From assembly GCA_017624675.1 (NCBI GenBank), contig JAGAMO010000041.1, positions 1 to 52,113 on the forward strand: 52,113 bases of DNA, in the 5' to 3' direction. The notes beneath the pieces were generated by a model, which searched no databases, was not told the DNA's origin, and was given only the letters and a program-made list of their open reading frames with translations. A program made the translations under genes and the position numbers. The first letter of the stretch is position 1; each line of letters opens with the position of its first letter. This DNA comes from Clostridia bacterium (GTDB lineage: Bacteria; Bacillota; Clostridia; Oscillospirales; Acutalibacteraceae). This document shows, piece by piece, positions 11,374-49,998 of this stretch.

Positions 11374-11390
11374 ATTTACACAGCCATATT

Positions 11391-11419: not shown

Positions 11420-11457
11420 CAAAAATATTCAGAATTTGAAAAATTTTAAAAATTTGA

Positions 11458-11487: not shown

Positions 11488-11496
11488 ATTTGGGTT

Positions 11497-11586: not shown

Positions 11587-11597
11587 AAAATTTCCCC

Positions 11598-11747: not shown

Positions 11748-11784
11748 AAGCACCCTCCTCTAGTACATTATATGGAGAGCCTTT

Positions 11785-25113: not shown

Positions 25114-25274
25114 TGTTTATTTTATTAGTTATATTTATTTCTGTTTTAAGTTTCCTAATTGGTTTTGCACTGGCTAAAAAAACCGTTTTGCCAGTAAAAC
25201 ACAAAATATCTCTTGAGTCTTCAAAGGACGAGGAGTATGAAAACTTTTTAAATTATGACGGAAATATCCAGTAA
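25113..25274 (+). CDS. 53-residue single-span membrane protein
   Basis: The ATG overlaps the terminase stop by one base (TAATG) with GGTGGG upstream. One hydrophobic helix at the N-terminus (FILLVIFISVLSFLIGFALA) is followed by a charged tail ending EYENFLNYDGNIQ. It overlaps nothing else of note and the stop at 25274 is 10 bp before the scaffold start. No family recognised; similar tiny membrane proteins occur in phage head modules. Confidence 0.65.
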   Translation: MFILLVIFISVLSFLIGFALAKKTVLPVKHKISLESSKDEEYENFLNYDGNIQ

Positions 25275-25284
25275 AGGAGAAAAA

Positions 25285-25875: not shown

Positions 25876-25893
25876 ATTTAAGGAGAAATTAAA

Positions 25894-27069: not shown

Positions 27070-27080
27070 TTTTTAAAAAT

Positions 27081-27111
27081 GTAAGGCCCAAGCCCTTGGT
27101 TTGGGCTTTAC
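27081..27111 (+). promoter_or_regulatory. hairpin between capsid and portal genes
   Basis: GTAAGGCCCAA (27081-27091) pairs with TTGGGCTTTAC (27101-27111), 11 bp including one G-U. No T-run follows, so it is more likely an attenuating or RNA-processing hairpin that lowers portal relative to capsid expression than a full terminator. Confidence 0.5.
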
Positions 27112-27129
27112 AGCTAAAGGGAGATTATT

Positions 27130-28653: not shown

Positions 28654-28655
28654 AA

Positions 28656-29003
28656 ATGACAGGAACCGAAATTTTTAACCGCGTTTGTTTTCTTTTAGGA
28701 TATTACGATTTTTTAAAGGACAATGACCAAACAAAGAAACTCGCCCTCATACAAATAATAAACCAGATTGCCGATGACCTGAATTTAAGCAAAATTGCCT
28801 CTCTTTCGGACAGTTTGACCCTAACTTCAAAACAGGCAGAGGCTTTGATTTACGGTGTTTGTATGCTTTTTGCCCTATCGTTAAAAGACTCCAACACCGC
28901 AAAGGTTTATTCGTCACTTTACAGCGTTAAGAGAAGCACTGCCTTAAATATTCAGGCAAAAAGAGAAGATGTTTTGCCCTATCCTTTAGACGGAGGGGTT
29001 TAA
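28656..29003 (+). CDS. head-tail connector-like protein
   Basis: 115 residues, mostly helical, 2 bp after portal. It is the size of head-completion adaptors (for example the gp4-type proteins of P22-like phages) and sits in the expected slot after portal. I see no diagnostic motif, so this is a positional call. Confidence 0.5.
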   Translation: MTGTEIFNRVCFLLGYYDFLKDNDQTKKLALIQIINQIADDLNLSKIASLSDSLTLTSKQAEALIYGVCMLFALSLKDSNTAKVYSSLYSVKRSTALNIQAKREDVLPYPLDGGV

Positions 29004-29004
29004 T

Positions 29005-31024: not shown

Positions 31025-31264
31025 ATGGATAACACTGTTTTGGTGGCTTTGATTTCCTTTAGCGGCACACTTATTGGCACCCTTGGCGGAATTATAGCAT
31101 CGGGAAAGCTTACCGCTTTCAGGCTTAAACAACTTGAAACAAAGCTTGATGCTCAAAGTAAAAGCGTTGCCAAAATACCCGTTATTGAGGAGAAAATTCA
31201 AGGTATTAACCGACGTATTCTTTTGCTTGAAAAAGATACCGCCCCATATCTCGACCTTAATTGA
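31025..31264 (+). CDS. holin/XhlA-like membrane protein
   Basis: 79 residues behind AGGAGG. One N-terminal hydrophobic helix (LVALISFSGTLIGTLGGIIA) is followed by a coiled coil (FRLKQLETKLDAQSK...IEEKIQGINRRILLLE). This is the common layout of small phage lysis-cassette proteins related to XhlA. No lysin gene accompanies it. It is the last gene of the cassette, just ahead of the rex promoter. Confidence 0.6.
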   Translation: MDNTVLVALISFSGTLIGTLGGIIASGKLTAFRLKQLETKLDAQSKSVAKIPVIEEKIQGINRRILLLEKDTAPYLDLN

Positions 31265-31271
31265 CAAATAC

Positions 31272-31300
31272 TTGACAATGTTTATAAAAAGTAATATTAT
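31272..31300 (+). promoter_or_regulatory. promoter of rex
   Basis: TTGACA (31272-31277), 17-bp spacer and TATTAT (31295-31300), about 30 bp before the rex start. A second TTGACAA copy lies at 31261-31267. No palindromic Rex site is evident, so no sign of autoregulation here. Confidence 0.75.
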
Positions 31301-31330
31301 AGTATATATTAGAGAATTGAGGTGAACTTT

Positions 31331-31960
31331 ATGGCTGGTGTAATTTCTGAGTCTGTTATTAAGCGACTTCCTAGATATTACCGTTTCTTGGGGGACCTGA
31401 AAGCTCAAGGTGTGGATAGAATTTCATCAAAAGAACTATCAACCAGAATGGGACTTACTGCAAGTCAGATAAGACAGGATTTAAACTGTTTTGGCGGTTT
31501 CGGTCAGCAGGGTTACGGCTATAATGTTCAGCTTCTTCACGGCGAAATTTCTGCAATTTTAGGTCTTGATGTTCCCAAAACCGCTATTTTAATCGGTATG
31601 GGTAATTTGGGTAAAGCCGTTACAATGCATATGAATTTTGATAATAAAGGTTTCAGAATTATCGGTCTTTTTGATGCCAAACCCTCACTTGTGGGTCAGG
31701 TTGTTAGAAATCTGCCCGTTAGGAACGCTGAGGATTTAGACGAATTCTGCCGTGAAAACCGACCTGAGGTTGCTATTCTTTGTATACCTAAAGAATCAGC
31801 AAAAGAGATTTCAAAACAACTTATCAACCTTGGCGTTAAAGCATTTTGGAACTTTAGCCACTATGATTTAATGCTTGAAAACCAAGATGTTATTGTGGAA
31901 AATGTTCACTTGAGTGAGAGCTTAATGAGACTCTCCTACCGAATGAAAAACGAAGATTAA
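31331..31960 (+). CDS. rex: redox-sensing repressor Rex
   Basis: About 209 residues from ATG 31331 (GAGGTG 7 bp upstream; a GTG at 31322 overlaps that site). A winged-helix domain (~1-80; ISSKELSTRMGLTASQIRQD, NCFGGFGQQGYGYNV) precedes a Rossmann domain with GMGNLGKA, which reads the NADH/NAD ratio, and a C-terminal swapped helix. Rex represses when NAD dominates and releases DNA when NADH rises. A matching operator lies at 37451 before the fumarate pathway operon. Confidence 0.97.
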   Translation: MAGVISESVIKRLPRYYRFLGDLKAQGVDRISSKELSTRMGLTASQIRQDLNCFGGFGQQGYGYNVQLLHGEISAILGLDVPKTAILIGMGNLGKAVTMHMNFDNKGFRIIGLFDAKPSLVGQVVRNLPVRNAEDLDEFCRENRPEVAILCIPKESAKEISKQLINLGVKAFWNFSHYDLMLENQDVIVENVHLSESLMRLSYRMKNED

Positions 31961-37431: not shown

Positions 37432-37460
37432 TTGATTTTATTGCAGGAGTTTGTTAAAAT
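37432..37460 (+). promoter_or_regulatory. promoter of the malate-to-succinate operon
   Basis: TTGATT (37432-37437), 17-bp spacer, TAAAAT (37455-37460). The leader to the first ATG is about 95 bp and contains no obvious terminator. The -10 is covered by the Rex-like operator. Confidence 0.65.
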
Positions 37461-37468
37461 ATAGACAA
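37451..37468 (+). promoter_or_regulatory. putative Rex operator over the -10
   Basis: TTGTTAAAATATAGACAA matches the Rex consensus TTGTTAA-N4-TTAACAA in 12 of 14 fixed positions (TAGACAA for TTAACAA in the right arm). It covers the -10 of the promoter above, so bound Rex would block RNA polymerase. A rex gene is present at 31331. The Rex family and consensus are established; binding here is inferred. Confidence 0.65.
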
Positions 37469-37564
37469 TGGTAACAATGTGCGCTTTTCTCGCTTTTTTC
37501 GAGGTGAAAAGCAAAAATATTGGTACTATATCCGAATAAATCAAAACAAAAAAGGAGGATGATT

Positions 37565-38506
37565 ATGAATAAAATCACTGTAATAGGTTCAGGAAGCGTA
37601 GGTTCTACAATTGCGTATACTTTAACAGTATCTGGAACCGCATCTGAAATTGTGATGATTGACATTAATCAGGAAAAGTCACAGGGAGAAGCATTGGACA
37701 TTAAACAAGGTGTTCCTTTCTGTAATCCCGCATCCGTTTACGCAGGCTCTTATGCCGATGCCGTAAATTCGGACATTGTAATTATTACTTCGGGCATTGC
37801 AAGAAAACCCGGTCAGTCACGTCTTGACTTGGCGCAAACCAATGTTGATGTATTAAAAAAGGTTTCTGAGGAAATCGTTAAATACGCTCCCGAAGCTATA
37901 TACATTATAGTAAGTAATCCTGTTGATGTTCTTACATATGTATTCCACAAGATTTCAGGAATTCCCGAAGAGCGCATTATTGGTTCCGGTACTATTTTGG
38001 ATACCTCACGTCTTCGCACACGTGTTGCAGAGTATTACAATGTTAATCAAAAGAATATTCACGCTTACGTTTTGGGCGAACACGGTGATTCTTCATTTAT
38101 CCCCTGGTCAATTGCAAATATTTCAAATGTTCCCATCGAGGATTACGCAAACGCTATTGTTGATTCTGAAGTTCACCCCACATTTGATCGCGCCGAGGCC
38201 GAAGATTATGTTCGCCGTTCAGGCGCTCGTGTTATCCGCCGTAAAGGCGCTACCTTCTATGCTGTTTCTATGTCGGTAGTTCACATTTGCAAATGTATCC
38301 TTAGCGGTATCGATACCACTATGACCGTTTCCACCATGCTTCACGGCGAATACGGAATTGATGATGTTTGCTTAAGTTTATTAAATGTTGTTGGTCGCAA
38401 GGGCGCTCACAGCAAGGTACTTTTACCACTTAACGAAAAAGAACTTGAAGAATTGCACCACAGTGCAAAATGCATTAAAGAAGTTATTAACAACATTAAA
38501 ATCTAA
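37565..38506 (+). CDS. mdh: malate dehydrogenase of the LDH-like type
   Basis: 313 residues from ATG 37565 (AAGGAGG upstream; the frame from 37520 is not supported). The fold is that of L-lactate/malate dehydrogenases: GSGSVGST NAD site, TSGIARKPGQSRLDL loop, LDTSRLR, GEHGDSSFIPWS with the catalytic His173 and KGATFYAVSMS. Most of it looks like lactate dehydrogenase, but position 80, which is Gln in LDH (Gln102) and Arg in malate dehydrogenase, is Arg. That one change is known to convert LDH to oxaloacetate specificity. Context agrees: fumarase follows. Predicted reaction: oxaloacetate + NADH to malate. Confidence 0.85.
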   Translation: MNKITVIGSGSVGSTIAYTLTVSGTASEIVMIDINQEKSQGEALDIKQGVPFCNPASVYAGSYADAVNSDIVIITSGIARKPGQSRLDLAQTNVDVLKKVSEEIVKYAPEAIYIIVSNPVDVLTYVFHKISGIPEERIIGSGTILDTSRLRTRVAEYYNVNQKNIHAYVLGEHGDSSFIPWSIANISNVPIEDYANAIVDSEVHPTFDRAEAEDYVRRSGARVIRRKGATFYAVSMSVVHICKCILSGIDTTMTVSTMLHGEYGIDDVCLSLLNVVGRKGAHSKVLLPLNEKELEELHHSAKCIKEVINNIKI

Positions 38507-38524
38507 TAGCGAGGTTATTTTTAC

Positions 38525-39901
38525 ATGGAATATCGTATTGAACATGATTCTATGGGCGAAATGAAGGTCCCTGCTGACCGCCTTTGGGCAGCACAGACCC
38601 AAAGAAGCCACGAAAACTTTGAAATCGGCGTTGGCATTGAAACTATGCCTGCTGAGATTATCCACGCTTTCGGTATTTTGAAGAAAGCAGCTGCTATTGC
38701 AAACAACGCTTTGCGTCCCGAAAAGATGACCGACGAAAAGCTCGGTGCCATCAAACAGGCTTGTGACGAGGTTATCGCAGGTGAGCTTAACGGTCACTTC
38801 CCTCTCGTTGTTTGGCAGACAGGTTCGGGCACACAGTCTAACATGAACTCTAACGAGGTTATTGCAAACCGCGGCAACCAGATTTTAGGCAAAACTCTTT
38901 TACATCCCAACGACGATGTAAATATGAGTCAGTCCTCTAACGACACATTCCCCACAGCTATGCACATTGCGGCAGTTTTAAGCTTGGAGGATAAGCTTAT
39001 CCCCGCAGTTGAAGAGTTAATTGCTACTTTCAAGAGACTTGAAAAGGAAAACGAGGGTATTGTTAAGAGCGGTAGAACCCATCTTCAGGACGCTACCCCC
39101 ATCACCTTCAGTCAAGAAATCAGCGGTTGGCGTTCAAGCCTTGAAAAGGATGTTGAACTTATCAAACGCGCTATTGAGCCTCTTCATGAGTTGGCTTTAG
39201 GCGGCACTGCTGTTGGTACAGGTCTTAACACACCTAAAGGCTTTGACACAGGTGTTGCTAAAGAGGTTGCTAACATCACAGGCAAGAATTTCGTTACAGC
39301 CGCAAACAAGTTCCACGCTTTAACCTCTAAGGATGAACTTGTATTTGCTCACGGCGCTGTTAAGGCTCTTGCTGCTGATATGATGAAGATTGCAAACGAC
39401 GTTCGTTGGTTGGCATCAGGTCCCCGTGATGGTTTAGGCGAAATCTTTATTCCCGAAAACGAGCCCGGCTCATCCATTATGCCTGGTAAGGTTAACCCCA
39501 CTCAGTGTGAGGCTGTAACAATGGTTGCAGTTCAAGTTATGGGTAACGATGTTGCTATCGGCTTGGCCGCTTCTCAGGGTAACTTTGAGCTTAATGTGTT
39601 TATGCCCGTTTGCATCTATAACTTCTTGCAGTCTGCCCGTCTTTTGGCAGAAGCAATTGTTTCTTTCAATAAGAACTGCGCTGTTGGTATTAAAGCAAAC
39701 AAAGAGAAGATGCACCACAATTTGCACAACTCTTTAATGCTTGTTACCGCTCTCAATCCTTATATCGGATACGAGAATGCTGCTAAGACTGCTAAGAAAG
39801 CATTTAAAGACAATATTTCACTTAAAGAAGCATGTGTAGAACTCGGATTTTTAACTGCTGAAAAATTCGATGAGGTTTTCCATCCAGAAGAGATGGTATA
39901 A
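38525..39901 (+). CDS. fumC: class II fumarase
   Basis: 458 residues, iron-independent class II enzyme (fumarate + water <-> malate). MEYRIEHDSMGEMKVPADRL opens it, with SSNDTFPTAMHIA, SGRTHLQDATPI and the flexible signature loop GSSIMPGKVNPTQCEA. Starts 19 bp after mdh. In this operon it would work in the malate to fumarate direction to feed the reductase. Confidence 0.96.
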   Translation: MEYRIEHDSMGEMKVPADRLWAAQTQRSHENFEIGVGIETMPAEIIHAFGILKKAAAIANNALRPEKMTDEKLGAIKQACDEVIAGELNGHFPLVVWQTGSGTQSNMNSNEVIANRGNQILGKTLLHPNDDVNMSQSSNDTFPTAMHIAAVLSLEDKLIPAVEELIATFKRLEKENEGIVKSGRTHLQDATPITFSQEISGWRSSLEKDVELIKRAIEPLHELALGGTAVGTGLNTPKGFDTGVAKEVANITGKNFVTAANKFHALTSKDELVFAHGAVKALAADMMKIANDVRWLASGPRDGLGEIFIPENEPGSSIMPGKVNPTQCEAVTMVAVQVMGNDVAIGLAASQGNFELNVFMPVCIYNFLQSARLLAEAIVSFNKNCAVGIKANKEKMHHNLHNSLMLVTALNPYIGYENAAKTAKKAFKDNISLKEACVELGFLTAEKFDEVFHPEEMV

Positions 39902-39917
39902 TTCGGAGGTATTTTTA

Positions 39918-40706
39918 ATGAAGGTTACTTATTTCCCCGGATGCACCTTAAAAAATAAGGCTAAGGACCTTGACTTATATGCTTATAAGTCTGCAGAAGC
40001 CTTGGGTGTTACTCTGGAAGAAATTGAAGACTGGCAATGCTGCGGCGGTGTATTCACAACCGCTAACGACGAGGTTGCCACAAAACTTTCATCCGTTCGC
40101 GCTCTAAAATATGCTGTAGACAAAAATCAGCCCTTGGTAACCGTTTGTTCTGCTTGTCACAATGTTATTAAGCAAACAAATCACGCAGTTCAGACAAACT
40201 CCCAATTTGCTGATAAGGTTAACAGATATATGGCGGACGGTTCTTACAACGGCGAGGCAGAGGTTTACCACTACCTCGAAATGTTGAGAGACTTGGTTGG
40301 TTTTGACAAGCTAAAAGAAAGCGTTGTAAACAGTCTTAAAGGCAAGAAGATTGCCGCTTACTACGGTTGCTTACTCCTTCGTCCCAACAGCGTAATGCGT
40401 ATGGACGACCCTGAGAATCCAACCATTATGGAAGATTTTATCAAGGCTTTAGGTGCTGACGCTGTGGTTTATGCTAAACGCAACGAATGTTGCGGTGGCT
40501 ACATTTCAGCAGAATCACCCGAAACTGCTAAAAAGAACAGTCAAGCAATCATTAACAACGCAAAGGCTCAAGGCGCCGAAATGATTATTACCGCTTGTCC
40601 TCTTTGCAAGTACAACCTTGTAAATAACGGCGCTGACATCCCTGTTGTTTACTTCACTGAACTTTTAGCCGAAGCACTTGGCGTAAAGGAGGATACAAAT
40701 GAATAA
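39918..40706 (+). CDS. hdrB: heterodisulfide reductase subunit B-like protein
   Basis: 262 residues from ATG 39918 (GGAGG 7 bp upstream). Two complete CCG cysteine-rich domains: FPGCTLKNK...WQCCGG...CSACHN (N-terminal half) and YYGCLLLRP...NECCGGY...CPLCKYN (C-terminal half), each the ligand set of a non-cubane 4Fe-4S cluster used to reduce disulfides in methanogen HdrB. In bacteria that lack coenzymes M and B the natural acceptor is unclear; in sulfate reducers Flx-Hdr is thought to use DsrC. No DsrC gene is present in the window. Confidence 0.9.
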   Translation: MKVTYFPGCTLKNKAKDLDLYAYKSAEALGVTLEEIEDWQCCGGVFTTANDEVATKLSSVRALKYAVDKNQPLVTVCSACHNVIKQTNHAVQTNSQFADKVNRYMADGSYNGEAEVYHYLEMLRDLVGFDKLKESVVNSLKGKKIAAYYGCLLLRPNSVMRMDDPENPTIMEDFIKALGADAVVYAKRNECCGGYISAESPETAKKNSQAIINNAKAQGAEMIITACPLCKYNLVNNGADIPVVYFTELLAEALGVKEDTNE

Positions 40707-41085
40707 TAAGTATCTTCAAGAAGAAATCGTTCGCATCAGCGGCGTTAATGTAAGCAAATGTATGCGTTGCGGTAAATGCTCGGCAACCTGCCCTGCTTAC
40801 GACGAGATGGAGTATCATCCCCATCAATTTGTAAATATGGTTGAGAACGGCGAAATTGAGCCTCTTCTCAATTCTGAGTCTTTATATAAATGTTTGTCCT
40901 GCTTTGCTTGTATTGACAGATGCCCCAGAGGCGTTCAACCCGCAAAGGTTGTTGAGGCTGTTCGTTTAACCGCAATTCGCAAACAGGGTAACAACCATTT
41001 AAAAGCAGACGATATTCCCGCAATCATTGATGATGAAACACCACAGCAGTTGCTTGTTAGTGCTTTCAGAAAATATACTAAGTAA
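40699..41085 (+). CDS. hdrC: heterodisulfide reductase subunit C-like protein
   Basis: 128 residues with two 4Fe-4S motifs, CMRCGKCSATCPA and CLSCFACIDRCPRG. It links HdrA to HdrB electronically. Its ATG overlaps the hdrB stop by 8 bp after AAAGGAGG. Confidence 0.93.
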   Translation: MNNKYLQEEIVRISGVNVSKCMRCGKCSATCPAYDEMEYHPHQFVNMVENGEIEPLLNSESLYKCLSCFACIDRCPRGVQPAKVVEAVRLTAIRKQGNNHLKADDIPAIIDDETPQQLLVSAFRKYTK

Positions 41086-41099
41086 GGAGGAAAAGACTA

Positions 41100-43094
41100 A
41101 TGCAAAGAGTTGGAGTTTTTGTATGTTGGTGCGGCAGTAACATTGCAGGTACAGTTGATGTTAAGGCAGTGGCTGAAGCCTTGAAAAGCGAACCCGGTGT
41201 TGTCTTTTCCACCGACTATCAATATATGTGTTCTCAAGCAGGACAGGATATGATTAAAAATGCCGTTAAAGAGCATAACCTCACAGGCATTGTTGTTTGC
41301 TCCTGTTCTCCCAGAATGCATGAGGCTACCTTCCGCAAGACTGCGGCGGCAGCAGGGCTCAACCCCTATATGGTTGAAATTGCAAATATCCGTGAGCAAT
41401 GCTCTTGGGTACATAAGGATATGTTAAGCGGTACCGAAAAGGCTATTATCTTAGGTAAAGCTGCAGTTGCAAAGGTTAACCTTAACGCTCCCCTAACGCC
41501 TGGCGAGTCCCCCGTTACCAAACGCGCTTTGGTTATCGGCGGCGGTATTGCAGGTATTCAAACCGCTCTCGATATTGCTGATGCAGGTTTCCCCGTTGAT
41601 ATTGTTGAAAAGAAACCCACTATCGGCGGTAAAATGGCTCAGCTTGATAAAACCTTCCCCACACTCGACTGTGCGGCTTGTATCTTAACACCTAAAATGG
41701 TGGATGTTGCCCAGAACGACAAAATCCGCATCTTCTCCTACAGTGAGGTAACCGATGTTCAGGGCTTTGTTGGTAACTTCGATGTTACCATCAAGAAGAA
41801 CGCAAGATATGTTAAGGAAGATATTTGTACGGGTTGCGGCGCTTGTGTTGATAAATGTCCTATGAAGAGAATTCCCAACGAGTTCAACTTAGGTATGGAC
41901 AATCGCCCTGCTATCTACATTCCTTTCGCTCAGGCAGTTCCGAAGGTTGCAACCATTGACCCCAATGCTTGTAATATGCTTAAGAACGGCAAGTGCGGAC
42001 TTTGTGCGAAAGTTTGCACCGCAGGTGCTATTGATTATACTCAAAAGGATGAATACATTGAGGAGAAATACGGCGCAATCGTTGTTGCAACCGGTTTCAA
42101 CCCCATTAGTATGGATAAGTTTGACGAGTTTGCTTACAGCCAGTCTAAAGATGTTATCACTTCTTTAGAGTTTGAGCGTCTTACAAATGCAGCAGGTCCT
42201 TCTGCAGGTAAGCTTCTGCGTCCTTCTGACGGTGAGCATCCCCACACTATAGTATTTGTTCAGTGTGTTGGCTCCCGTTGTGAGTCTTGCGCTGAAAAGG
42301 GCAAGGAATATTGCTCTAAGATTTGCTGTATGTATACTGCAAAACACGCTATGCTTACTCGTGATAAATATCCCGACACCGAGGTTTATGTATTCTATAT
42401 TGATGTAAGAACCCCAGGTAAAAACTTTGACGAGTTCTATCGTCGTGCTGTTGAAGAGTACGGCGTTAAATATGTTAAGGGTATGGTTGGTAAGATTACC
42501 CCCGAAGGTAAGAAACTTAAGGTTCAGGCTTCTGACCTTCTTGCTAACAAGCAGTTACATATTGATGCTGACTTGGTTGTTTTAGCAGCCGCTATCGAGC
42601 CTGACAAATCCGCTCGTCCTTTGGCTACTATGCTTACTGCAAGTATGGATACCAACGACTTCTTCACCGAAGCTCACCCCAAGCTTCGTCCTGTTGAAAG
42701 TCCAACAGCCGGTGTATTCCTCTCGGGCGCTTGTCAAGGTCCTAAGGATATTCCCGAAACCGTATCTCAGGCAGGAGCCGCCGCTTCTAAGGTTATTGGT
42801 CTTCTTGCTAAAGATAAGCTCACAGGTAACCCCTGTGTTGCAGGTTCAAATGAACTTATATGTAACGGATGTTCTTCTTGCGCTAATGTTTGTCCCTATG
42901 GCGCTATCAGTTACGAAGACAAAGAGTTCCGTATGCCAGACAGAACAACAAAGGTTAGAAGAATCGCTGTTGTTAATCCCGCAGTTTGTCAGGGTTGCGG
43001 CGCTTGTACCGTTACCTGTCCTTCGGGCGCTATGGACTTAAAGGGATTTGCAAACTTACAAATTATGGCGGAGGTTGACGCAATATGCAAGTAA
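41100..43094 (+). CDS. hdrA: heterodisulfide reductase subunit A-like flavoprotein
   Basis: 664 residues, typical length. N-terminal thioredoxin-reductase-like start (VGVFVCWCGSNI), FAD motif VIGGGIAGIQTALDIA, the HdrA hallmark CAACILTPKM, and four 4Fe-4S motifs: CTGCGACVDKCP, CGLCAKVC, CNGCSSCANVCP and CQGCGACTVTCP. HdrA is the flavin-based bifurcation centre that sends one electron to ferredoxin and one to HdrB. Cysteine number suggests a full complement of clusters. Confidence 0.95.
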   Translation: MQRVGVFVCWCGSNIAGTVDVKAVAEALKSEPGVVFSTDYQYMCSQAGQDMIKNAVKEHNLTGIVVCSCSPRMHEATFRKTAAAAGLNPYMVEIANIREQCSWVHKDMLSGTEKAIILGKAAVAKVNLNAPLTPGESPVTKRALVIGGGIAGIQTALDIADAGFPVDIVEKKPTIGGKMAQLDKTFPTLDCAACILTPKMVDVAQNDKIRIFSYSEVTDVQGFVGNFDVTIKKNARYVKEDICTGCGACVDKCPMKRIPNEFNLGMDNRPAIYIPFAQAVPKVATIDPNACNMLKNGKCGLCAKVCTAGAIDYTQKDEYIEEKYGAIVVATGFNPISMDKFDEFAYSQSKDVITSLEFERLTNAAGPSAGKLLRPSDGEHPHTIVFVQCVGSRCESCAEKGKEYCSKICCMYTAKHAMLTRDKYPDTEVYVFYIDVRTPGKNFDEFYRRAVEEYGVKYVKGMVGKITPEGKKLKVQASDLLANKQLHIDADLVVLAAAIEPDKSARPLATMLTASMDTNDFFTEAHPKLRPVESPTAGVFLSGACQGPKDIPETVSQAGAAASKVIGLLAKDKLTGNPCVAGSNELICNGCSSCANVCPYGAISYEDKEFRMPDRTTKVRRIAVVNPAVCQGCGACTVTCPSGAMDLKGFANLQIMAEVDAICK

Positions 43095-43519
43095 ATGAAT
43101 ATAAGCCTTTAATAGTTGCATTTTGCTGCAACTGGTGCTCTTATGCAGGTGCTGACCTTGCGGGTAACAACCGCTTGGCTTACCCTGCCGATGTTAAGAT
43201 TATCCGTGTTCCCTGCTCCTGCCGTGTTAATCCTATGTTTATTCTTCGTGCTTTCCAGCGTGGAGCAGACGGTGTTATAATCTGCGGTTGCCACCCCGGT
43301 GACTGTCACTATACTTCGGGTAACTATTATACCCGCCGCCGTATGGCAGCCCTTTTCTCAATGCTTGATTTCTTAGGCATTGAAAGAGAGCGTACCCGTG
43401 TTGAGTGGGTATCTGCTGCCGAAGGCGCAAAATTCGCCGCAACAATGAACGACTTTGTAGAAAAAGTAACCGCTCTCGGCGAAAATAAGAGATTGGAGGA
43501 TTTGAGATGCAAAAAATAA
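43085..43519 (+). CDS. flxD: MvhD/FlxD-like 2Fe-2S protein
   Basis: 144 residues. FCCNWCSYAGADLAG, VPCSCRVN and CGCHPGDCHY are the MvhD/FlxD cysteine motifs. In methanogens MvhD joins hydrogenase to HdrA; in Flx systems FlxD joins the NADH module to HdrA. Starts inside the end of hdrA (10-bp overlap). Confidence 0.92.
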   Translation: MQVNEYKPLIVAFCCNWCSYAGADLAGNNRLAYPADVKIIRVPCSCRVNPMFILRAFQRGADGVIICGCHPGDCHYTSGNYYTRRRMAALFSMLDFLGIERERTRVEWVSAAEGAKFAATMNDFVEKVTALGENKRLEDLRCKK

Positions 43520-44505
43520 CCCGTGAACAATTAATCGAAAAAGCATCCGCTCTCCTTTCAAATTCTACCGTTAGCTGTGTTTTAGGTTGGGGTATGGGCG
43601 AATTTGATTACGATGTAACCCCCACCACCTTTAACAGTGTAGAAGAATTAGAAAAAGGTTTCGTTTTCAGCGATTTCTGCGGTGCGAACTTTTCTAAATA
43701 CTTAGTTAAGAAAGCAGCAGCCTGCGAAGGCAAAATTCTTGTTTTCTTAAAGCCTTGCGATACATACAGCTTTAATCAGCTTTTAACCGAGCATCGTTTT
43801 GACCGTGAGAAAGTTTATGTTGTTGGTATTCCTTGCGAAGGCATGGCAGACATCAACAAGGTAAAGGCTATCTGCGGCGAGGGTATCTTGTCTATCGGTT
43901 CAAAGGGCGACAAAATGACCGTTACCACCCTTTATGATGACGAACCCGTTTCTATCGATGCTAAAGAGGTTTTGGCCGAGAGATGTTTGAACTGCAAGAG
44001 CAAAAAGCATGTTGCCTTTGATGAGTTGTTAGGCGACGAGGGCGATGTAATCGAGTCAAACCGTTTCGACGAGGTTGCCCGTCTTGAAGCTATGACTCCC
44101 GATGAAAGATTTGCTTTCTGGCAGAACGAGCTTTCCCGTTGCATTCGTTGTAATGCTTGTCGTGATGCTTGTCCCGCTTGCACTTGCGAGAAATGTGTTT
44201 TTGATAACCCCAATTCAGGCGTTGAGAACAAGTCTCCCGCAAACAGCTTTGAAGAGAAGCTCTTCCATATTATCAGAGCATACCACGTTGCAGGTCGTTG
44301 TACCGACTGTGGCGAGTGTTCGAGAGTTTGTCCTCAAAACATTCCTTTACACCTTTTAAACCGCAAATTCATTAAGGATATTAATGAATTCTACGGTGAA
44401 TATCAGGCAGGTGCTGAGGAAGGTCAACGCGCTCCCCTCGTTGATTACACAACCGAGGACTTAGAGCCGGGCGAGGTTTTTGACAGGAGGGATTCTGATG
44501 CGTAA
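43507..44505 (+). CDS. flxC: FlxC-like iron-sulfur protein
   Basis: 332 residues. An N-terminal half (~1-190) with an FrhB-like look (FLKPCDTYSFNQ, CLNCKSKKHVAF) precedes a double 4Fe-4S domain: CIRCNACRDACPACTCEKC and CTDCGECSRVCPQN. It overlaps flxD by 13 bp and flxB by 8 bp. It would carry electrons between the NADH-binding subunit and FlxD. The subunit letter is by analogy with FlxABCD-HdrABC of sulfate reducers; exact orthology is not certain. Confidence 0.8.
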   Translation: MQKITREQLIEKASALLSNSTVSCVLGWGMGEFDYDVTPTTFNSVEELEKGFVFSDFCGANFSKYLVKKAAACEGKILVFLKPCDTYSFNQLLTEHRFDREKVYVVGIPCEGMADINKVKAICGEGILSIGSKGDKMTVTTLYDDEPVSIDAKEVLAERCLNCKSKKHVAFDELLGDEGDVIESNRFDEVARLEAMTPDERFAFWQNELSRCIRCNACRDACPACTCEKCVFDNPNSGVENKSPANSFEEKLFHIIRAYHVAGRCTDCGECSRVCPQNIPLHLLNRKFIKDINEFYGEYQAGAEEGQRAPLVDYTTEDLEPGEVFDRRDSDA

Positions 44506-45526
44506 ATGTTCTCTTGATAAATTAAACCTTATCTTTGCAGAAATTGCAAAGGATGCGGCACTTTATCTTCCTGCCGACCAGACAGACGGTAGCGCCGCTT
44601 ATAAAAAGTGGGAAGAGGGCACTGCTTTGAGCGACGCTCTTAACACTGTCAGAAGTCCTAAGGATTTCTTCTTCCCCCAGACCGAAGACCTTATGAAATT
44701 TAAAACTCAGGGCAAGAATATTGACATTATCGATATCAGAACTGCTCTTGAAGATTTTGTAATCTTTGGCGTTAGAGCTTGTGATGTTAAAAGCTTTGAT
44801 ATTCTCGACAGAGTATTCTTAACAGAGCCTGTTGACAGCTTCTACGCTTCAAGAAGAAGTCACGGAATCATTGTTTCTATGGCTTGTACAAGACCTTCGG
44901 AAACCTGTTTCTGCAAGACCTTCTCAATTGACCCTGCAAACCCCGCAGGCGATGTTTCTGCTTGGAAAAGTGAGACAGAGATTTTCTTTGAAGCTAACAC
45001 CCAAAAGGGTGAAGACTTCTTAAATAAGATTTCTTCTTTAACCGAAGAATGTGATGACACTTTGGTTGCCACTCAAAAGGAAGCCATCAATAAAATTATG
45101 GATAAGCTTCCCCTTAAAAATCTTGATACCTCTGCTTTCGGCGGTGGCAAGACAAACGAGTTGTTTGATTCTCCCGCATGGGCTGAGCTTTCTCAGTCTT
45201 GTCTTGGTTGCGGAACCTGTACCTTCGTTTGCCCCACCTGTCAGTGCTATGATATTAAAGATTTTAACACAGGCAACGAGGTTATTCGTTTCAGATGTTG
45301 GGATTCTTGTATGTATTCCGACTTTACAAAAATGGCGCACGGCAACAACCGTCTCACCCAAAAAGAGCGTTTCCGTCAGAGATTTATGCACAAGCTTGTG
45401 TATTATCCTGAAAACAACGACGGATTATTCAGCTGTGTTGGTTGCGGACGCTGTCTTGCAAAATGCCCGATATCTATGAATATCGTAAAGGTAATGAAAA
45501 AGATTGGAGGAAACAAAAGTGAATAA
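44498..45526 (+). CDS. flxB: FlxB-like (AsrA/HydB-type) iron-sulfur protein
   Basis: About 342 residues from ATG 44498 (AGGAGG 8 bp upstream). A ~200-residue N-terminal domain with GVRACDVKSFDILDRVF and STACTRP-type cysteines leads to two 4Fe-4S motifs, CLGCGTCTFVCPTCQC and CVGCGRCLAKCP. This matches the electron-carrying subunit of AsrA, HydB and Flx complexes. Overlaps both neighbours. Confidence 0.82.
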   Translation: MRKCSLDKLNLIFAEIAKDAALYLPADQTDGSAAYKKWEEGTALSDALNTVRSPKDFFFPQTEDLMKFKTQGKNIDIIDIRTALEDFVIFGVRACDVKSFDILDRVFLTEPVDSFYASRRSHGIIVSMACTRPSETCFCKTFSIDPANPAGDVSAWKSETEIFFEANTQKGEDFLNKISSLTEECDDTLVATQKEAINKIMDKLPLKNLDTSAFGGGKTNELFDSPAWAELSQSCLGCGTCTFVCPTCQCYDIKDFNTGNEVIRFRCWDSCMYSDFTKMAHGNNRLTQKERFRQRFMHKLVYYPENNDGLFSCVGCGRCLAKCPISMNIVKVMKKIGGNKSE

Positions 45527-46352
45527 TGTAAACGACACCTTGATTCCTAAAGTCGGCGTCATTACCGATGTTCGCATTGATACACCCGATATTAAAACAT
45601 TCCGCGTTGTAACACCCGACGGTAAAAAGGCGTTCGACCATATGCCTGGTCAATGCGCAATGCTTTCTATCCCCGGTGTTGGCGAGGCTATGTTCTCGAT
45701 TACCTCTTCCCCCACAAATGAAGAGTATATGGAATTTTCCATAAAGAAGTGCGGTTGCGTGACCGACTGGCTTCACAATGCTGAAGTGGGTCAACAAATC
45801 ACCATCAGAGGACCTTACGGCAAACCCTTCCCCGTTGACGATGTTTTCGCAGGAAAAGACCTCCTTTTCATTGCGGGCGGTGTTGGTTTAGCTCCTCTTC
45901 GCTCGGTAATTAACTACTGCCGTCACTACCGTGACCGTTACGGTAAAATCGATATTGTTTACGGCTCACGCAGTAAGGACGACTTGCTTGACTATCAAGA
46001 GATTATCAATGAGTGGTCAACCGACAGTGGCGTTAACGTTCACTTAACCATTGATAACCCACAAGAGGGTTGGGACGGTCACGTTGGTTTTGTTCCTACC
46101 TATGTTAAAGAGCTTGGATTTGACACCAATAAGGTTGCAGTTTTGTGCGGACCCCCGATTATGATTAAATTCACTCTTGACGGTCTTTGTGAAATTGGTT
46201 TTGATAAGACAAATGTTTATACAACACTTGAGCTTAGAATGAAGTGCGGTGTGGGCAAATGCGGCAGATGTAATGTTGGCGCTAAATATGTCTGCAAAGA
46301 CGGCCCCGTCTTCCGTTGTGATGAACTGGAAGAACTTCCTGACGAGTATTAA
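45519..46352 (+). CDS. flxA: FlxA-like NAD(P)H:flavin oxidoreductase subunit
   Basis: About 277 residues from GTG 45519, with GGAGG 8 bp upstream; a TTG at 45504 lies inside that site and is unlikely. FAD/NAD reductase fold: FSITSSPTNEEYMEF (FAD), LLFIAGGVGLAPLRS (NAD), CGPPIMIKFT, and a C-terminal 2Fe-2S motif MKCGVGKCGRCNVG as in PyrK and AsrB. This is the NADH entry point of the complex. Confidence 0.9.
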   Translation: MNNVNDTLIPKVGVITDVRIDTPDIKTFRVVTPDGKKAFDHMPGQCAMLSIPGVGEAMFSITSSPTNEEYMEFSIKKCGCVTDWLHNAEVGQQITIRGPYGKPFPVDDVFAGKDLLFIAGGVGLAPLRSVINYCRHYRDRYGKIDIVYGSRSKDDLLDYQEIINEWSTDSGVNVHLTIDNPQEGWDGHVGFVPTYVKELGFDTNKVAVLCGPPIMIKFTLDGLCEIGFDKTNVYTTLELRMKCGVGKCGRCNVGAKYVCKDGPVFRCDELEELPDEY

Positions 46353-46364
46353 AGGAGAAAAAGT

Positions 46365-47039
46365 ATGGAAAATATGGTAAATATTTACCTTTATGGTAAA
46401 AAGTATGAGGTTCCTGAGAGCCTTACTATTATGAATGCTATGGAATATGCAGGCTACCAACTCGTTCGCGGTGTTGGATGCCGTTGCGGATTCTGCGGCG
46501 CTTGTGCTACTATATACCGCATAAAAGGTCAGCAAGAACTCAAAACCTGTCTTGCTTGTCAGACTAAGGTTGAGGACAATATGTATATTGCAACTCTTCC
46601 TTTCTTCCCGCTTGTAAAACAACCCTATGAAATTGAGAACGTTAAACCCACCGAGCAGATTATGATGCAGCTTTACCCCGAAATTTACGCTTGTATCGGT
46701 TGTAACGCTTGTACCAAGGCTTGTACTCAAGAGCTTAATGTTATGCAATACATAGCTTACGCTCAGAGAGGCGACTTTGAAAAGTGTGCAGAAGAATCTT
46801 TTGACTGCGTAATGTGCGGCGTTTGTTCTTCCCGTTGCCCTGCAGGAATTACACATCCTCAGGTAGGTCTTTTGGCAAGACGTCTTAACGGTAAGTATCT
46901 TGCTCCCGAAACACAACACCTTTTAGAGCGTGTTGCTGAAATCGAAAACGGCGGTTGCGAAGCAGACCTTCAGGATATTATGAAGAAGACTGCTGAGGAA
47001 CTCAAAGAAATGTATAACAATCGTGATTTTGAGAAATAA
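46365..47039 (+). CDS. frdB: fumarate reductase iron-sulfur subunit
   Basis: 224 residues. A plant-type 2Fe-2S domain (CRCGFCGAC...CLAC) is followed by two cysteine motifs, CIGCNACTKAC and CVMCGVCSSRCPAG. Compared with ordinary FrdB/SdhB it has fewer residues between the domains, and it lacks the HdrB-like extension of methanogen TfrB. It should pass electrons to FrdA. Confidence 0.88.
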   Translation: MENMVNIYLYGKKYEVPESLTIMNAMEYAGYQLVRGVGCRCGFCGACATIYRIKGQQELKTCLACQTKVEDNMYIATLPFFPLVKQPYEIENVKPTEQIMMQLYPEIYACIGCNACTKACTQELNVMQYIAYAQRGDFEKCAEESFDCVMCGVCSSRCPAGITHPQVGLLARRLNGKYLAPETQHLLERVAEIENGGCEADLQDIMKKTAEELKEMYNNRDFEK

Positions 47040-47053
47040 GGAGGTGCGATAAT

Positions 47054-48673
47054 ATGTATACACAGGAAATGTTAGAATCCATAAAAAAGGTTGAGGCAAC
47101 CCGTGAGGAGCGTCTCAAACAAATTCTCGCAGGCAATCATCCCAGACGTATGACTGCTGAAGAAAAGGACCAAGTTTTACTTGAAAACCATCCCGACCAC
47201 ATAAAGTCGCAGTTTGCCGAGCTCAAAATCGGTCCCAACAAGGGCGAAAAAGTGCCGATTGAACTTGCTGAGACTTTACAGGCTAACCCCAGAATTAACC
47301 CCGCAGACATTGACCTTACAAAGATTGATTATGATGTTGATGTTTTGGTTATAGGTGGCGGCGGCGCAGGTTCTGCGGCTGCTATTATGGCACACGAAAA
47401 CGGCGCTAATGTTATGATTGTAACCAAGCTTCGTCACGGTGATGCCAACACAATGATGGCTGAAGGCGGTATTCAGGCTGCTGATAAGCCTAACGACAGC
47501 CCTGCTCAACACTATCTTGATGTTATGGGCGGCGGTCACTTTAAAAATGTGCCTGAGCTTGTTTACAAATTGGTTAACGATGCTCCTGTTTGTATTAAAT
47601 GGCTTAACGAACTCGGTGTTATGTTCGATAAGGAAGCAGACGGCACAATGGTAACCACCCACGGCGGCGGTACCTCCAGAAAGCGTATGCACGCTTGTAA
47701 GGACTATTCGGGTGCTGAAATTATGCGTGTTTTACGCGATGAAGTTCAAAACCGTCAAATTCCCGTTGTTGATTTCACATCAGCTATCGAAATTATTAAG
47801 GACGAAAACGGCAAGGCTGCCGGCGCTGTTCTTATGAATATGGAAACCAAGGATATTTTGATTGCTCGCGCAAAAACTGTAATCATCGCTACCGGCGGTG
47901 CAGGTCGTATGCACTATCAAGGCTTCCCAACCTCTAACCACTATGGCGCTACTGCTGACGGTCTTGTTTTGGCTTACCGTGCAGGTGCTCCCTTGCTTTA
48001 TGCTTACACTTTACAGTACCACCCCACAGGCGCTGCTTATCCTTCACAGATTTTCGGCGCATTAGTTACTGAGAAGGTTCGTTCTATCGGTGCTCAGCTT
48101 ATCAACTCCGAGGGTGAAGCATTTATGTATCCTCTTGAGACCCGTGACGTTTGCGCTTCTTCTGTTATCAGAGAATGCCGCAGAGGTAACGGTATTGACA
48201 CCTTTGGTGGCGGTCAGGGTGTCTGGCTTGACTCTCCTATGATTGAGATGCTCCACGGCGAAGGCACTATTGAGAAGAGAATTCCTGCTATGATGCGTAT
48301 GTACCTTAAATATGGTATTGATATGCGTAAGCAACCCATTCTTATTTATCCTACCCTCCACTATCAAAACGGCGGTATCAAGATTGCTGACAACGGTATG
48401 TCAGATGTTGAGAACCTCTTTGTTGCAGGTGAGGCTGTAGGAGGAATTCACGGCGAAAACCGTCTTATGGGTAACTCTCTCCTTGATATCATTGTATTTG
48501 GTCGTAACGCAGGTGTTAATGCTGCTGCAGTTGCTAAAAATACTGTTGTTAGCGACAAACTCAACCTCGACCATGTTGAAAGCTTTAAAAAGGAAATGGC
48601 TGAAGCAGGTATTAAAACCGATAAAGTTTCTCCCAAACTTCTTCCTAACTATACAAAGCAGAAGGATTTTTAA
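47054..48673 (+). CDS. frdA: fumarate reductase flavoprotein subunit
   Basis: 539 residues. FAD site VIGGGGAGSAAAIMAHENG, the flavin-linking/proton region HGDANTMMAEGGIQA, HPTGAAYPSQ, the substrate Arg/His region LHYQNGGI and GEAVGGIHGENRLMGNSLLD are in place. There are 90 residues before the FAD domain, and the C-terminal helical domain found in SdhA/FrdA is missing: the protein ends ~85 residues after NRLMGNSL. No membrane anchor subunit (FrdCD) is encoded, so the enzyme is soluble. Reduction of fumarate to succinate is the predicted direction. Confidence 0.9.
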   Translation: MYTQEMLESIKKVEATREERLKQILAGNHPRRMTAEEKDQVLLENHPDHIKSQFAELKIGPNKGEKVPIELAETLQANPRINPADIDLTKIDYDVDVLVIGGGGAGSAAAIMAHENGANVMIVTKLRHGDANTMMAEGGIQAADKPNDSPAQHYLDVMGGGHFKNVPELVYKLVNDAPVCIKWLNELGVMFDKEADGTMVTTHGGGTSRKRMHACKDYSGAEIMRVLRDEVQNRQIPVVDFTSAIEIIKDENGKAAGAVLMNMETKDILIARAKTVIIATGGAGRMHYQGFPTSNHYGATADGLVLAYRAGAPLLYAYTLQYHPTGAAYPSQIFGALVTEKVRSIGAQLINSEGEAFMYPLETRDVCASSVIRECRRGNGIDTFGGGQGVWLDSPMIEMLHGEGTIEKRIPAMMRMYLKYGIDMRKQPILIYPTLHYQNGGIKIADNGMSDVENLFVAGEAVGGIHGENRLMGNSLLDIIVFGRNAGVNAAAVAKNTVVSDKLNLDHVESFKKEMAEAGIKTDKVSPKLLPNYTKQKDF

Positions 48674-48687
48674 GGGGGAAATAAAAA

Positions 48688-49950
48688 ATGAGTTTATTTA
48701 ACGGAGTTATTTCCATCGGCAATGTTTCCACATTGTTGTTTGTCTGCTTCGCAGTTCTTTTACTCGGCTACGCTCTTGGCAGAATAACAATTAAGGGCGT
48801 TTCTTTAGGCGACGCAGGTGTGTTTATTGTGGCACTCTTGCTTGGCGCATTGTTCTTTAGTGTTAACGACGCCGGAAACCTTTTGTTTGCGGCATCCTCC
48901 ACTGGCTATGATTTTTCAAGCGGTCTTTCAATAATTGAAAGCTTAGGTCTTGTTCTTTTCGTAACCTCTGTTGGATATATTGCAGGTCCTAAGTTCTTCG
49001 GCAACTTTAAGAGAAACTTCAAGTCTTATGTGCTTTTAGGTCTCATTATTATCCTTGCAGGCGGTATTGCTGCTGCGGGTTGTATCTATGCTGGTGAATT
49101 CTTAGGCTATGGCGCAACCATTAAAGAGCAGGACGGATTTGTAGCTATGATAGTTGGTCTTCTTTCAGGCTCACTAACATCTACCCCCGCTTTCTCTGCC
49201 GCAAAGGCAACCGTTGCTCCTGAGTTTACAGGTCTTGTATCGGTAGGCCACGGTATTGCTTATATCTTCGGTGTTGTTGGCGTTGTGCTTTTCGTTCAGA
49301 TTATCCCCAAGATGACAAAGGCTAATATGGACGAAGAACGCGCAAAGCTTGTTATCGCATCTGAAGGAGAAGAGAAAAAGGGCATTTTAAAGCTTTTCGA
49401 AATTGACCATATGGGTATTGCAGGCTTCTCTCTTGCCGCAATTCTCGGTACATTCATCGGTCAGATTAAAATTCCCCTTTCCTCACAAGGACTTAGCGGT
49501 ACCTGCTTCTCTCTTACAACCACAGGCGGTTGCTTACTTGCAAGTTTGGTTTTAGGTCACTTCGGTAGAATCGGTAAGGTTAGCATTATGCCCGCTCAAG
49601 GCACACTCAAGCTTTTCAGAGAGTTGGGACTCGTTCTCTTCCTCGTGGGCGCTGGTATCCCCGGTGGCGCAGAGTTCGTTGCAAACTTCGACCCCATGTA
49701 TTTCGTTTACGGTATCGTAATGACTATTGTACCCCTAATCCTTGGTTACTTGTTTGCAAAATATGTTCTTAAGCTCAGCTTACTTAACAACCTCGGTTCT
49801 ATCACCGGCGGTATGACAAGTACTCCCGCTTTGGGAACACTTATTGGTGTTGCAGGTACTGAGGATGTAGCAGCCGCTTACGCTGCAACCTATCCTATTG
49901 CACTTATTGCGGTTGTTTTGGTTTCCCAGTTCCTTGTAATCTTATTCTAA
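48688..49950 (+). CDS. AspT/SucE-family transporter, probable succinate exporter
   Basis: 420 residues, about ten membrane helices in two halves. The repeated GSLTSTPAFSAAKATV and GGMTSTPALGTLIGVA sequences mark the two halves of the aspartate-alanine exchanger family (AAE). Members normally carry two TrkA-C regulatory domains between the halves and are near 550 residues; here a short charged linker (KMTKANMDEERAKLV) replaces them. SucE1 of Corynebacterium, a succinate exporter, belongs to this family. Being the last gene after frdA, it is likely the succinate exit (inference). Confidence 0.75.
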   Translation: MSLFNGVISIGNVSTLLFVCFAVLLLGYALGRITIKGVSLGDAGVFIVALLLGALFFSVNDAGNLLFAASSTGYDFSSGLSIIESLGLVLFVTSVGYIAGPKFFGNFKRNFKSYVLLGLIIILAGGIAAAGCIYAGEFLGYGATIKEQDGFVAMIVGLLSGSLTSTPAFSAAKATVAPEFTGLVSVGHGIAYIFGVVGVVLFVQIIPKMTKANMDEERAKLVIASEGEEKKGILKLFEIDHMGIAGFSLAAILGTFIGQIKIPLSSQGLSGTCFSLTTTGGCLLASLVLGHFGRIGKVSIMPAQGTLKLFRELGLVLFLVGAGIPGGAEFVANFDPMYFVYGIVMTIVPLILGYLFAKYVLKLSLLNNLGSITGGMTSTPALGTLIGVAGTEDVAAAYAATYPIALIAVVLVSQFLVILF

Positions 49951-49967
49951 TTTAAGAATATAAAGTT

Positions 49968-49998
49968 AAACCCGTGCTTCGAAATGAAGCACGGGTTT
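49968..49998. terminator. bidirectional terminator of the succinate operon
   Basis: AAACCCGTGCTTC (49968-49980) and GAAGCACGGGTTT (49986-49998) make a perfect 13-bp stem with a 5-nt loop and T-run, 18 bp after the transporter and just before the convergent esterase gene. Confidence 0.95.

What the first reader, a model, noticed from the sequence alone, without database searches (positions are those of the whole stretch)
37432..49998. Operon for NADH-driven, electron-bifurcating soluble fumarate reduction coupled to succinate export
One tightly coupled operon joins mdh, fumC, hdrBCA, flxDCBA-like genes, frdBA and an AspT/SucE-type transporter. Known parts: HdrA flavin bifurcation, the FlxABCD-HdrABC module of sulfate reducers, soluble thiol:fumarate reductase of methanogens. 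The combination, with no membrane anchor, no quinone and no CoM/CoB, suggests NADH is split toward fumarate and ferredoxin, giving a bacterium a cytoplasmic, energy-conserving route to succinate. I do not know a characterised bacterial system of this exact composition.
Basis: partly seen in the sequence, partly recalled or inferred. Interest (0 to 1): 0.85.

Follow-up and report, generated by a model that had tools for sequence, protein, structure and literature searches.

The report
Electron-bifurcating soluble fumarate reductase operon
A bacterium related to gut Clostridia carries one operon that probably turns malate into succinate with NADH while also charging ferredoxin; such an operon was already proposed in a succinate-making thermophile, but here it proves widespread, and its fumarate reductase also occurs with other electron inputs or with none.

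Summary
In detail: twelve same-strand genes (37565-49950, gaps -23 to +18 bp, terminator 49968-49998) encode malate dehydrogenase, fumarase, HdrBCA, FlxDCBA, FrdBA and an AspT-like transporter.

Support: of 62 order-level genomes with both genes, 59 have HdrA 3.9-4.2 kb upstream of FrdA, and three are broken at contig ends. The covalent-FAD histidine is Asn in 128 of 128 FrdA, predicting reduction only. The genome has RnfC but no UbiA-type gene or DsrC match. Rex-like sites precede 12 of 58 operons against 3 of 246 controls, though not that of the nearest relative. Electron flow, bifurcation and export are untested.

It is not new: Koendjbiharie and colleagues described such a "succinate operon" in Pseudoclostridium thermosuccinogenes and proposed the same coupling. 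Four of these are in the window's own family; three form a clade nested among operon carriers, so there Hdr-Flx was probably lost. This modularity is the most novel part.

The parts
37432..37468 (+). promoter-like site (TTGATT-17-TAAAAT, 37432-37460) overlapping a Rex-like operator TTGTTAAAATATAGACAA (37451-37468)
   Evidence: only match with 2 or fewer mismatches to TTGTTAANNNNTTAACAA in the window; alone not above chance (12 matches at up to 3 mismatches, 9.9 expected)
37565..38506 (+). mdh: LDH-type malate dehydrogenase (Arg at the LDH Gln102 position)
38525..39901 (+). fumC: class II fumarase
   Evidence: TIGR00979 717.9 bits, cut-off 664.75
39915..40706 (+). hdrB: two CCG domains; 10 Cys conserved in 97% or more of 62 operon copies
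40699..41085 (+). hdrC: two [4Fe-4S] motifs, 8 conserved Cys
41100..43094 (+). hdrA: flavin subunit, aligns end to end with HdrA of solved complex 5odc
   Evidence: residues 3-661, E 1.4e-205
43085..43519 (+). flxD: MvhD/FlpD-like [2Fe-2S] subunit
   Evidence: PF02662 186.9 bits
43507..44505 (+). flxC: 4Fe-4S dicluster protein
44498..45526 (+). flxB: 4Fe-4S protein like sulfhydrogenase beta / AsrA
45504..46352 (+). flxA: FAD and NAD(P)H-binding subunit like sulfhydrogenase gamma / AsrB
   Evidence: orthologues of 69% identity or more only in the operon genomes among 10 tested
46365..47039 (+). frdB: [2Fe-2S] domain plus two four-Cys [4Fe-4S] motifs, no CCG domain
   Evidence: 12 Cys in 99-100% of 127 sequences
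47054..48673 (+). frdA: soluble flavoprotein; about 90-residue N-terminal extension, no Pfam C-terminal domain hit, Asn132 in place of the FAD-linking His
48688..49950 (+). compact AspT/YidE-family transporter (two Asp-Al_Ex stretches, 420 aa)
49968..49998 (+). intrinsic terminator-like stem-loop
31322..31960 (+). rex: NADH/NAD+-sensing repressor, a likely regulator; not part of the operon
   Evidence: NF003990 292.3 bits, cut-off 233

Best explanation
The operon encodes a cytoplasmic NADH:fumarate/ferredoxin oxidoreductase and the steps that feed it. Malate dehydrogenase and fumarase make fumarate. FlxA takes a hydride from NADH; FlxB, FlxC and FlxD pass electrons to the HdrA flavin; HdrA sends one electron of each pair down to ferredoxin and the other through HdrC and HdrB into the distal ferredoxin-like domain of FrdB, and so to FrdA, where fumarate becomes succinate. 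Thus 2 NADH + oxidised ferredoxin + fumarate would give 2 NAD+ + reduced ferredoxin + succinate, and Rnf could cash in the ferredoxin. Rex probably derepresses the operon in some lineages when NADH is high. Shown: gene content, order, conservation, motifs, co-occurrence. Inferred: every electron step, the HdrB-FrdB contact, bifurcation, direction and export.
For: Adjacency: 55 of 55 informative loci; FrdA in 66 and HdrA in 65 of 394 order-level genomes, both in 62, HdrA 3.9-4.2 kb upstream in 59 and contig ends in 3. In that sample HdrA without FrdA occurs in 3 genomes: two contig ends and one divergent HdrA. FrdA active-site residues His323, Glu340, Arg364, His436, Arg470 in 128 of 128 and Thr339 in 127. 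Asn replaces the FAD-linking His in 128 of 128; homologues with noncovalent FAD reduce fumarate only (PMC9557727, passages). FrdB has four-Cys third-cluster motif. HdrA matches 5odc end to end with its cluster-motif Cys kept, by eye. RnfC over cut-off in 10 of 10 genomes; UbiA over cut-off in 1 of 10 and no match in G000, with 14 of 14 controls positive; DsrC in 0 of 14. Rex-like sites in 12 of 58 operon upstreams, 0.58 in shuffles, 3 of 246 other upstreams. After Hdr loss, conserved FrdB sites changed mainly in the 4Fe-4S domain, 16 of 45 against 5 of 70. Standard free energy -33 to -48 kJ/mol from recalled potentials.
Against: FrdBA occurs without any HdrA in 8 of 26 genomes tested, so Hdr-Flx is not needed in every organism. 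The nearest relative (L013/L035) has no Rex-like site within 300 bp (best 5 mismatches). The FrdB region 100-160 was chosen, and three of the four solo sequences are one clade. ATP-type PEPCK was found in 0 of 10 genomes, so the oxaloacetate source is unknown; GTP-PEPCK and pyruvate carboxylase were not searched. Only RnfC of Rnf was searched. No structure could be predicted and nothing was tested at the bench.
Confidence: 0.68

Rival explanations
1. Plain NADH:fumarate reductase: Flx-Hdr only relays NADH electrons to FrdBA and ferredoxin is not reduced.
For: Bifurcation cannot be read from sequence; in other lineages FrdBA works with shorter Hdr sets such as hdrCB alone (4 of 39 phylum loci), which cannot bifurcate by HdrA.
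Against: HdrA is kept with all its cluster motifs in each of the 55 informative operon loci; a simple relay would not need it.
Confidence: 0.13
2. Thiol:fumarate reductase: HdrB works on a thiol/disulfide carrier and FrdBA is driven by that thiol, as in methanogen TfrAB.
For: Best NCBIfam model for FrdA is TfrA (343.5 bits); FrdB plus HdrB together cover TfrB; hdrCB-frdBA without hdrA exists in 4 of 39 phylum loci.
Against: TfrA cut-off 718 not reached; FrdB has no CCG domain; DsrC in 0 of 14 genomes; CoM/CoB genes were not searched.
Confidence: 0.1
3. FrdBA has its own soluble donor (ferredoxin, flavodoxin or NADH) and Hdr-Flx is a separate enzyme that merely shares the operon.
For: FrdBA without any HdrA in 8 of 26 genomes, among them four of the window's own family that also lack UbiA over cut-off and a close FlxA orthologue.
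Against: In the order, HdrA is nearly confined to FrdA genomes (62 of 65); the solo FrdB sequences changed mainly in the 4Fe-4S domain, as expected if the partner there was lost; three of them nest inside the operon lineage on longer branches.
Confidence: 0.06
4. The operon runs backwards and oxidises succinate by electron confurcation.
For: HdrA complexes can be reversible in principle (recalled).
Against: Asn at the FAD-linking position in 128 of 128 FrdA; such homologues do not oxidise succinate (PMC9557727); reverse reaction uphill by 33-48 kJ/mol.
Confidence: 0.03

Closest known systems
Succinate operon of Pseudoclostridium thermosuccinogenes (PMC7282089, passages and abstract seen; 2019 preprint by Koendjbiharie and van Kranenburg known only as a citation)
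   Same: Fumarase, Flx-Hdr complex, fumarate reductase and a hypothetical, possibly succinate-exporting, protein in one operon; NADH-to-ferredoxin coupling proposed. The paper reports about 4-fold higher expression at low CO2, not significant for all subunits.
   Different: Here mdh heads the operon. I did not fetch that genome, so sequence identity between the two was not measured. No enzyme assay was seen for either.
FlxABCD-HdrABC of Desulfovibrio vulgaris (Ramos 2015, known here only as a citation and from passages in PMC5296606)
   Same: Same seven subunits; NADH dehydrogenase/heterodisulfide reductase.
   Different: There the acceptor is postulated to be DsrC; here FrdBA is encoded beside it and DsrC was not found in 14 genomes.
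tfrAB interspersed with korABCD and flxABCD-hdrABC in tubeworm symbionts and Thioflavicoccus mobilis (PMC6315080, passages)
   Same: Soluble Tfr-like fumarate reductase genes mixed with flx-hdr genes.
   Different: Serves the reductive TCA cycle in Gammaproteobacteria; mixed with korABCD; no fermentation operon.
Thiol:fumarate reductase TfrAB of methanogens
   Same: TfrA is the best NCBIfam hit of FrdA; FrdB and HdrB match separate parts of TfrB.
   Different: CCG part is a separate HdrB; below the TfrA and TfrB cut-offs.
Quinol:fumarate reductase FrdABCD / MfrABE
   Same: Homologous catalytic domain; HdrB resembles the Mfr SdhE subunit (160.7 bits).
   Different: No membrane-anchor gene in the operon, Asn instead of the FAD-linking His, four-Cys third cluster, SdhE cut-off 500 not reached.

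Membership tests
Flx-Hdr-Frd succinate operon (P. thermosuccinogenes type) | fumarase, seven flx-hdr genes, frdBA and a transporter in one operon | tested here: met
Flx-Hdr-Frd succinate operon (P. thermosuccinogenes type) | orthology to the P. thermosuccinogenes proteins | not tested
   that genome was not among the loci fetched; the one genome-contig scan kept only the nearest 80
FlxABCD-HdrABC | HdrA, HdrB, HdrC, FlxA-D all present with cluster motifs | tested here: met
FlxABCD-HdrABC | NADH-dependent ferredoxin reduction by bifurcation | not testable with these tools
   needs enzyme assay
Thiol:fumarate reductase TfrAB | TfrA equivalog score | tested here: not met
   343.5 bits, cut-off 718
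Thiol:fumarate reductase TfrAB | CCG domain fused to FrdB | tested here: not met
   FrdB has no CCG hit; CCG lies in HdrB
Quinol:fumarate reductase / succinate dehydrogenase | His that binds FAD covalently | tested here: not met
   Asn132 in 128 of 128 (alignment)
Quinol:fumarate reductase / succinate dehydrogenase | membrane anchor subunits in the operon | tested here: not met
   no such ORF among the twelve genes
Quinol:fumarate reductase / succinate dehydrogenase | quinone biosynthesis in the genome | tested here: not met
   no UbiA match in G000 (96.7% complete); controls 14 of 14
Methylmenaquinol:fumarate reductase MfrABE | SdhE equivalog score of the CCG subunit | tested here: not met
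   160.7 bits, cut-off 500
Malate dehydrogenase (LDH-like) | Arg at the LDH Gln102 position | tested here: met
   rule recalled

The most novel reading that the evidence does not exclude
FrdBA is an exchangeable, soluble terminal reductase that plugs directly into Hdr proteins: HdrB hands electrons to the 4Fe-4S domain of FrdB with no disulfide in between, so fumarate itself replaces the heterodisulfide as the high-potential acceptor of HdrA bifurcation. Across the phylum the same FrdBA has been rewired to a full NADH module, to HdrA plus FlxD without FlxABC, to HdrCB alone, or to an unknown soluble donor after losing Hdr.
Probability: 0.45. Interest if true: 0.65.

Novelty: new member of a known kind. 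Interest (0 to 1): 0.45.

Why it matters
Succinate is a main product of gut fermentation, and textbook fumarate reduction needs quinones and a membrane. A soluble, quinone-free, ferredoxin-charging route would explain how small gut Clostridia without quinone genes make succinate and still conserve energy through Rnf. The comparative result adds a natural experiment: close relatives that kept FrdBA but have no HdrA, which makes the coupling directly testable.

Tried and rejected
Rejected: quinone-linked fumarate reductase (no UbiA match in the genome; four-Cys third cluster; Asn132). Rejected: lactate dehydrogenase for the first gene, despite two NCBIfam LDH models above cut-off, because of the Arg. 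Rejected: DsrC as the acceptor (0 of 14 genomes). Rejected as evidence on its own: the Rex-like site in the window (12 matches at up to 3 mismatches, 9.9 expected); only the comparison across operons carries weight. The promoter scan did not beat shuffles.

Led nowhere: ATP-PEPCK (0 of 10); Rfam found only the tRNA; a literature search for tfrAB in Firmicutes gave no paper; passages on Flx and fumarate reductase in PMC5861303 were reference-list entries only; PMC12887300 did not link the two enzymes in the passages seen.

Rows dropped: the tree used 129 of 135 loci as its pool (short or interrupted FrdA left out) and only every fourth of the 80-locus set, 71 rows in all, quick method with SH-aLRT only. 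The Rex set of 58 holds two duplicate pairs (L013/L035, L017/L104) and one row with a misplaced start (L049), none of them hits.
Full report
What is there. Twelve genes on one strand, 37565-49950, with gaps of -23 to +18 bp and a terminator-like stem-loop at 49968-49998. Family searches give malate dehydrogenase, class II fumarase, HdrB, HdrC, HdrA, an MvhD-like FlxD, two 4Fe-4S proteins (FlxC, FlxB), an FAD/NAD(P)H-binding FlxA, FrdB, FrdA and an AspT/YidE-family transporter. The first gene scores as L-lactate dehydrogenase above cut-off in two NCBIfam models and as malate dehydrogenase in a third; its Arg at the LDH Gln102 position, kept in 46 of 46 operon copies examined, argues for malate dehydrogenase (rule recalled).

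Anatomy of the reductase. FrdA (539 aa) has about 90 residues before the FAD domain that match no solved relative, and solved relatives align only to about residue 485-517; no C-terminal succinate dehydrogenase domain was hit in Pfam. The catalytic His323, Glu340, Arg364, His436 and Arg470 occur in 128 of 128 FrdA sequences compared here and Thr339 in 127. The His that binds FAD covalently in SdhA/FrdA is Asn132 in 128 of 128. PMC9557727 (passages) states that homologues with noncovalent FAD only reduce fumarate. FrdB has twelve cysteines conserved in 99-100% of 127 sequences, arranged as a [2Fe-2S] site and two four-Cys [4Fe-4S] sites, unlike the [3Fe-4S] centre of quinone-linked enzymes (recalled). 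HdrA aligns end to end with the HdrA of 5odc; by eye the cysteines of its cluster motifs are kept. HdrB has both CCG motifs.

Co-occurrence near the window. One capped scan of named genomes kept the best 80 of 563 relatives, nearly all titled as Clostridia or Bacillota metagenome-assembled genomes, many from herbivore guts; two titles name spirochaetes. Of these, 55 have at least 7 kb upstream and 55 of 55 hold all seven hdr/flx genes and frdB; fumC is seen in 46, mdh in 40 and aspT in 38 of the 55 (some lack downstream DNA). Of the other 25, 16 show at least flxA, and 9 have under 900 bp upstream and say nothing. These are the nearest relatives, so this sample is biased towards agreement. In 394 genomes of the window's order, FrdA is found in 66 and HdrA in 65, both in 62 (Fisher p 1.8e-63, not corrected for relatedness). 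HdrA lies 3913-4246 bp upstream of FrdA on the same strand in 59 of 62; in the other three both genes lie at or near contig ends (from contig lengths). HdrA without FrdA: G166 and G404 are cut at contig ends, G120 has a divergent HdrA in another setting. FrdA without HdrA: G226 and G277 are fragments at contig ends, G203 and G310 are real.

Co-occurrence further away. In 398 genomes of the phylum, 39 (with the window's) hold this FrdA family at 690 bits or more; the next score is 292. I fetched 39 loci from the 38 others. By neighbourhood: 1 full hdr-flx set, 15 with hdrA and flxD but no flxA detected, 4 with hdrC and hdrB only, 16 with no hdr or flx detected, 3 cut too short. Of the 15, eleven have the Hdr genes upstream (in L130 with a 1070-aa HdrA-like protein) and four have hdrBCA-flxD downstream of frdBA. 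One of the 16 (L164) has only 3.2 kb upstream, and L162 showed no frdB. Neighbours read by eye in L130, L134, L135, L145 and L148 are fumarate-linked: malic enzyme, class I fumarase, an aspartase-like or fumarase-like gene. Of 26 genomes without adjacent HdrA, 8 have no HdrA at all (E up to 1e-60): G003, G010, G203, G310, G792, G487, G711, G484, each 97-99% complete. Thus Hdr-Flx and FrdBA are tightly coupled in the order and separable in the phylum.

Loss of Hdr-Flx. In a quick FrdA tree of 71 rows the input classes cluster (16 changes, shuffled mean 39.8), and the solo sequences of G003, G010 and G203 form a clade (support 92) inside branches starred at 95-96% that also hold operon carriers. 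That reads as loss of Hdr-Flx. G310 sits nearby but on a long branch. In the four solo FrdB sequences of the family, positions conserved in operon FrdB changed in 16 of 45 cases within residues 100-160 (the two-[4Fe-4S] domain) and 5 of 70 elsewhere (Fisher p 3e-4). Other classes: 12/45 and 15/70, 16/45 and 13/70, 12/45 and 17/70, 12/45 and 13/70, 11/45 and 20/70; one of these leans the same way, less strongly. None of 1000 random sets of four operon members reached the value, but those are less diverged. The region was set, and the sequences are not independent. I take it as a hint that Hdr docks there.

Genome context. G000 is 1.58 Mb in 41 contigs, 96.7% complete. RnfC is over cut-off in 10 of 10 genomes tested (other Rnf subunits not searched), [FeFe] hydrogenase domains in 10 of 10. 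UbiA is over cut-off in 1 of 10 (G034), with no match in G000, and in 14 of 14 controls, so prenylquinones are unlikely. DsrC: 0 of 14. ATP-PEPCK: 0 of 10; other oxaloacetate sources were not searched. FlxA orthologues of 69% or more occur in the six operon genomes; the solo genomes have best hits of 29-37%.

Regulation. A rex gene lies at 31322-31960. A Rex-like site (2 mismatches to TTGTTAANNNNTTAACAA, the motif used in PMC9600882, passages) overlaps a promoter-like site 97-114 bp before mdh. Sites with at most 2 mismatches occur in the 300 bp before the operon in 12 of 58 rows, 0.58 expected from shuffles, and 3 of 246 upstream regions of other genes in the same loci (p 2.4e-7). Against this, 46 of 58 lack such a site, the nearest relative included.

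Mechanism. With recalled potentials (NADH -320 mV, fumarate +30 mV, ferredoxin -420 or -500 mV) the bifurcating reaction releases 48 or 33 kJ/mol. My best reading is NADH to FlxA, FlxB/C, FlxD, HdrA; from HdrA to ferredoxin and, through HdrC and HdrB, to FrdB, FrdA and fumarate. Only the genes are shown; each electron step is inferred.

Novelty. PMC7282089 (abstract and passages) describes a succinate operon of Pseudoclostridium thermosuccinogenes with fumarase, Flx-Hdr, fumarate reductase and a possible succinate transporter, assumes coupling of fumarate reduction to ferredoxin reduction as proposed in a 2019 preprint (not seen), and reports about 4-fold higher expression at low CO2, with the caveat that not all subunits are significant. 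PMC6315080 (passages) describes tfrAB interspersed with flx-hdr. So the window is a new member of a known kind. In ten searches of the held open-access library I saw no account of the modular wiring or of the loss of Hdr-Flx, but no search was aimed at those two points alone, and most subscription journals are not held.

Noticed in passing
window 23818-31014: Phage head cluster between yicC-like and rex genes: terminase large subunit, major head protein, portal protein and two unassigned ORFs (206 and 669 aa) on one strand; no tail gene was assigned among the five proteins scanned.
   Followed up: partly
window 1060-11049: Signalling cluster: Ser/Thr kinase fused to leucine-rich repeats, FHA-ABC ATPase, zinc-ribbon protein, PP2C phosphatase, transglutaminase-like protein, after a serine resolvase at 265-873.
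   Followed up: partly
L121 (G127) and L122 (G158), frdA: frdA is split into two ORFs in different frames near residue 312-318 in two genomes of different families; assembly error or real interruption not decided.
   Followed up: partly
L118 (G120) 6273-14405, minus strand: A divergent HdrA (48% identity) with a FlpD-domain protein, 4Fe-4S proteins and an FAD-linked oxidase-like gene, read by eye: an Hdr set without FrdBA.
   Followed up: no
L132, L134, L144, L156: hdrC-hdrB-frdB-frdA without hdrA or flx nearby; these genomes hold HdrA elsewhere.
   Followed up: partly
window 31261-31278: A Rex-like sequence with 3 mismatches lies 44 bp before the rex gene, a possible autoregulatory site; not above chance by itself.
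   Followed up: no
L055 and L111: Two operon loci come from genomes titled as spirochaetes; horizontal transfer or mis-binning was not examined.
   Followed up: no
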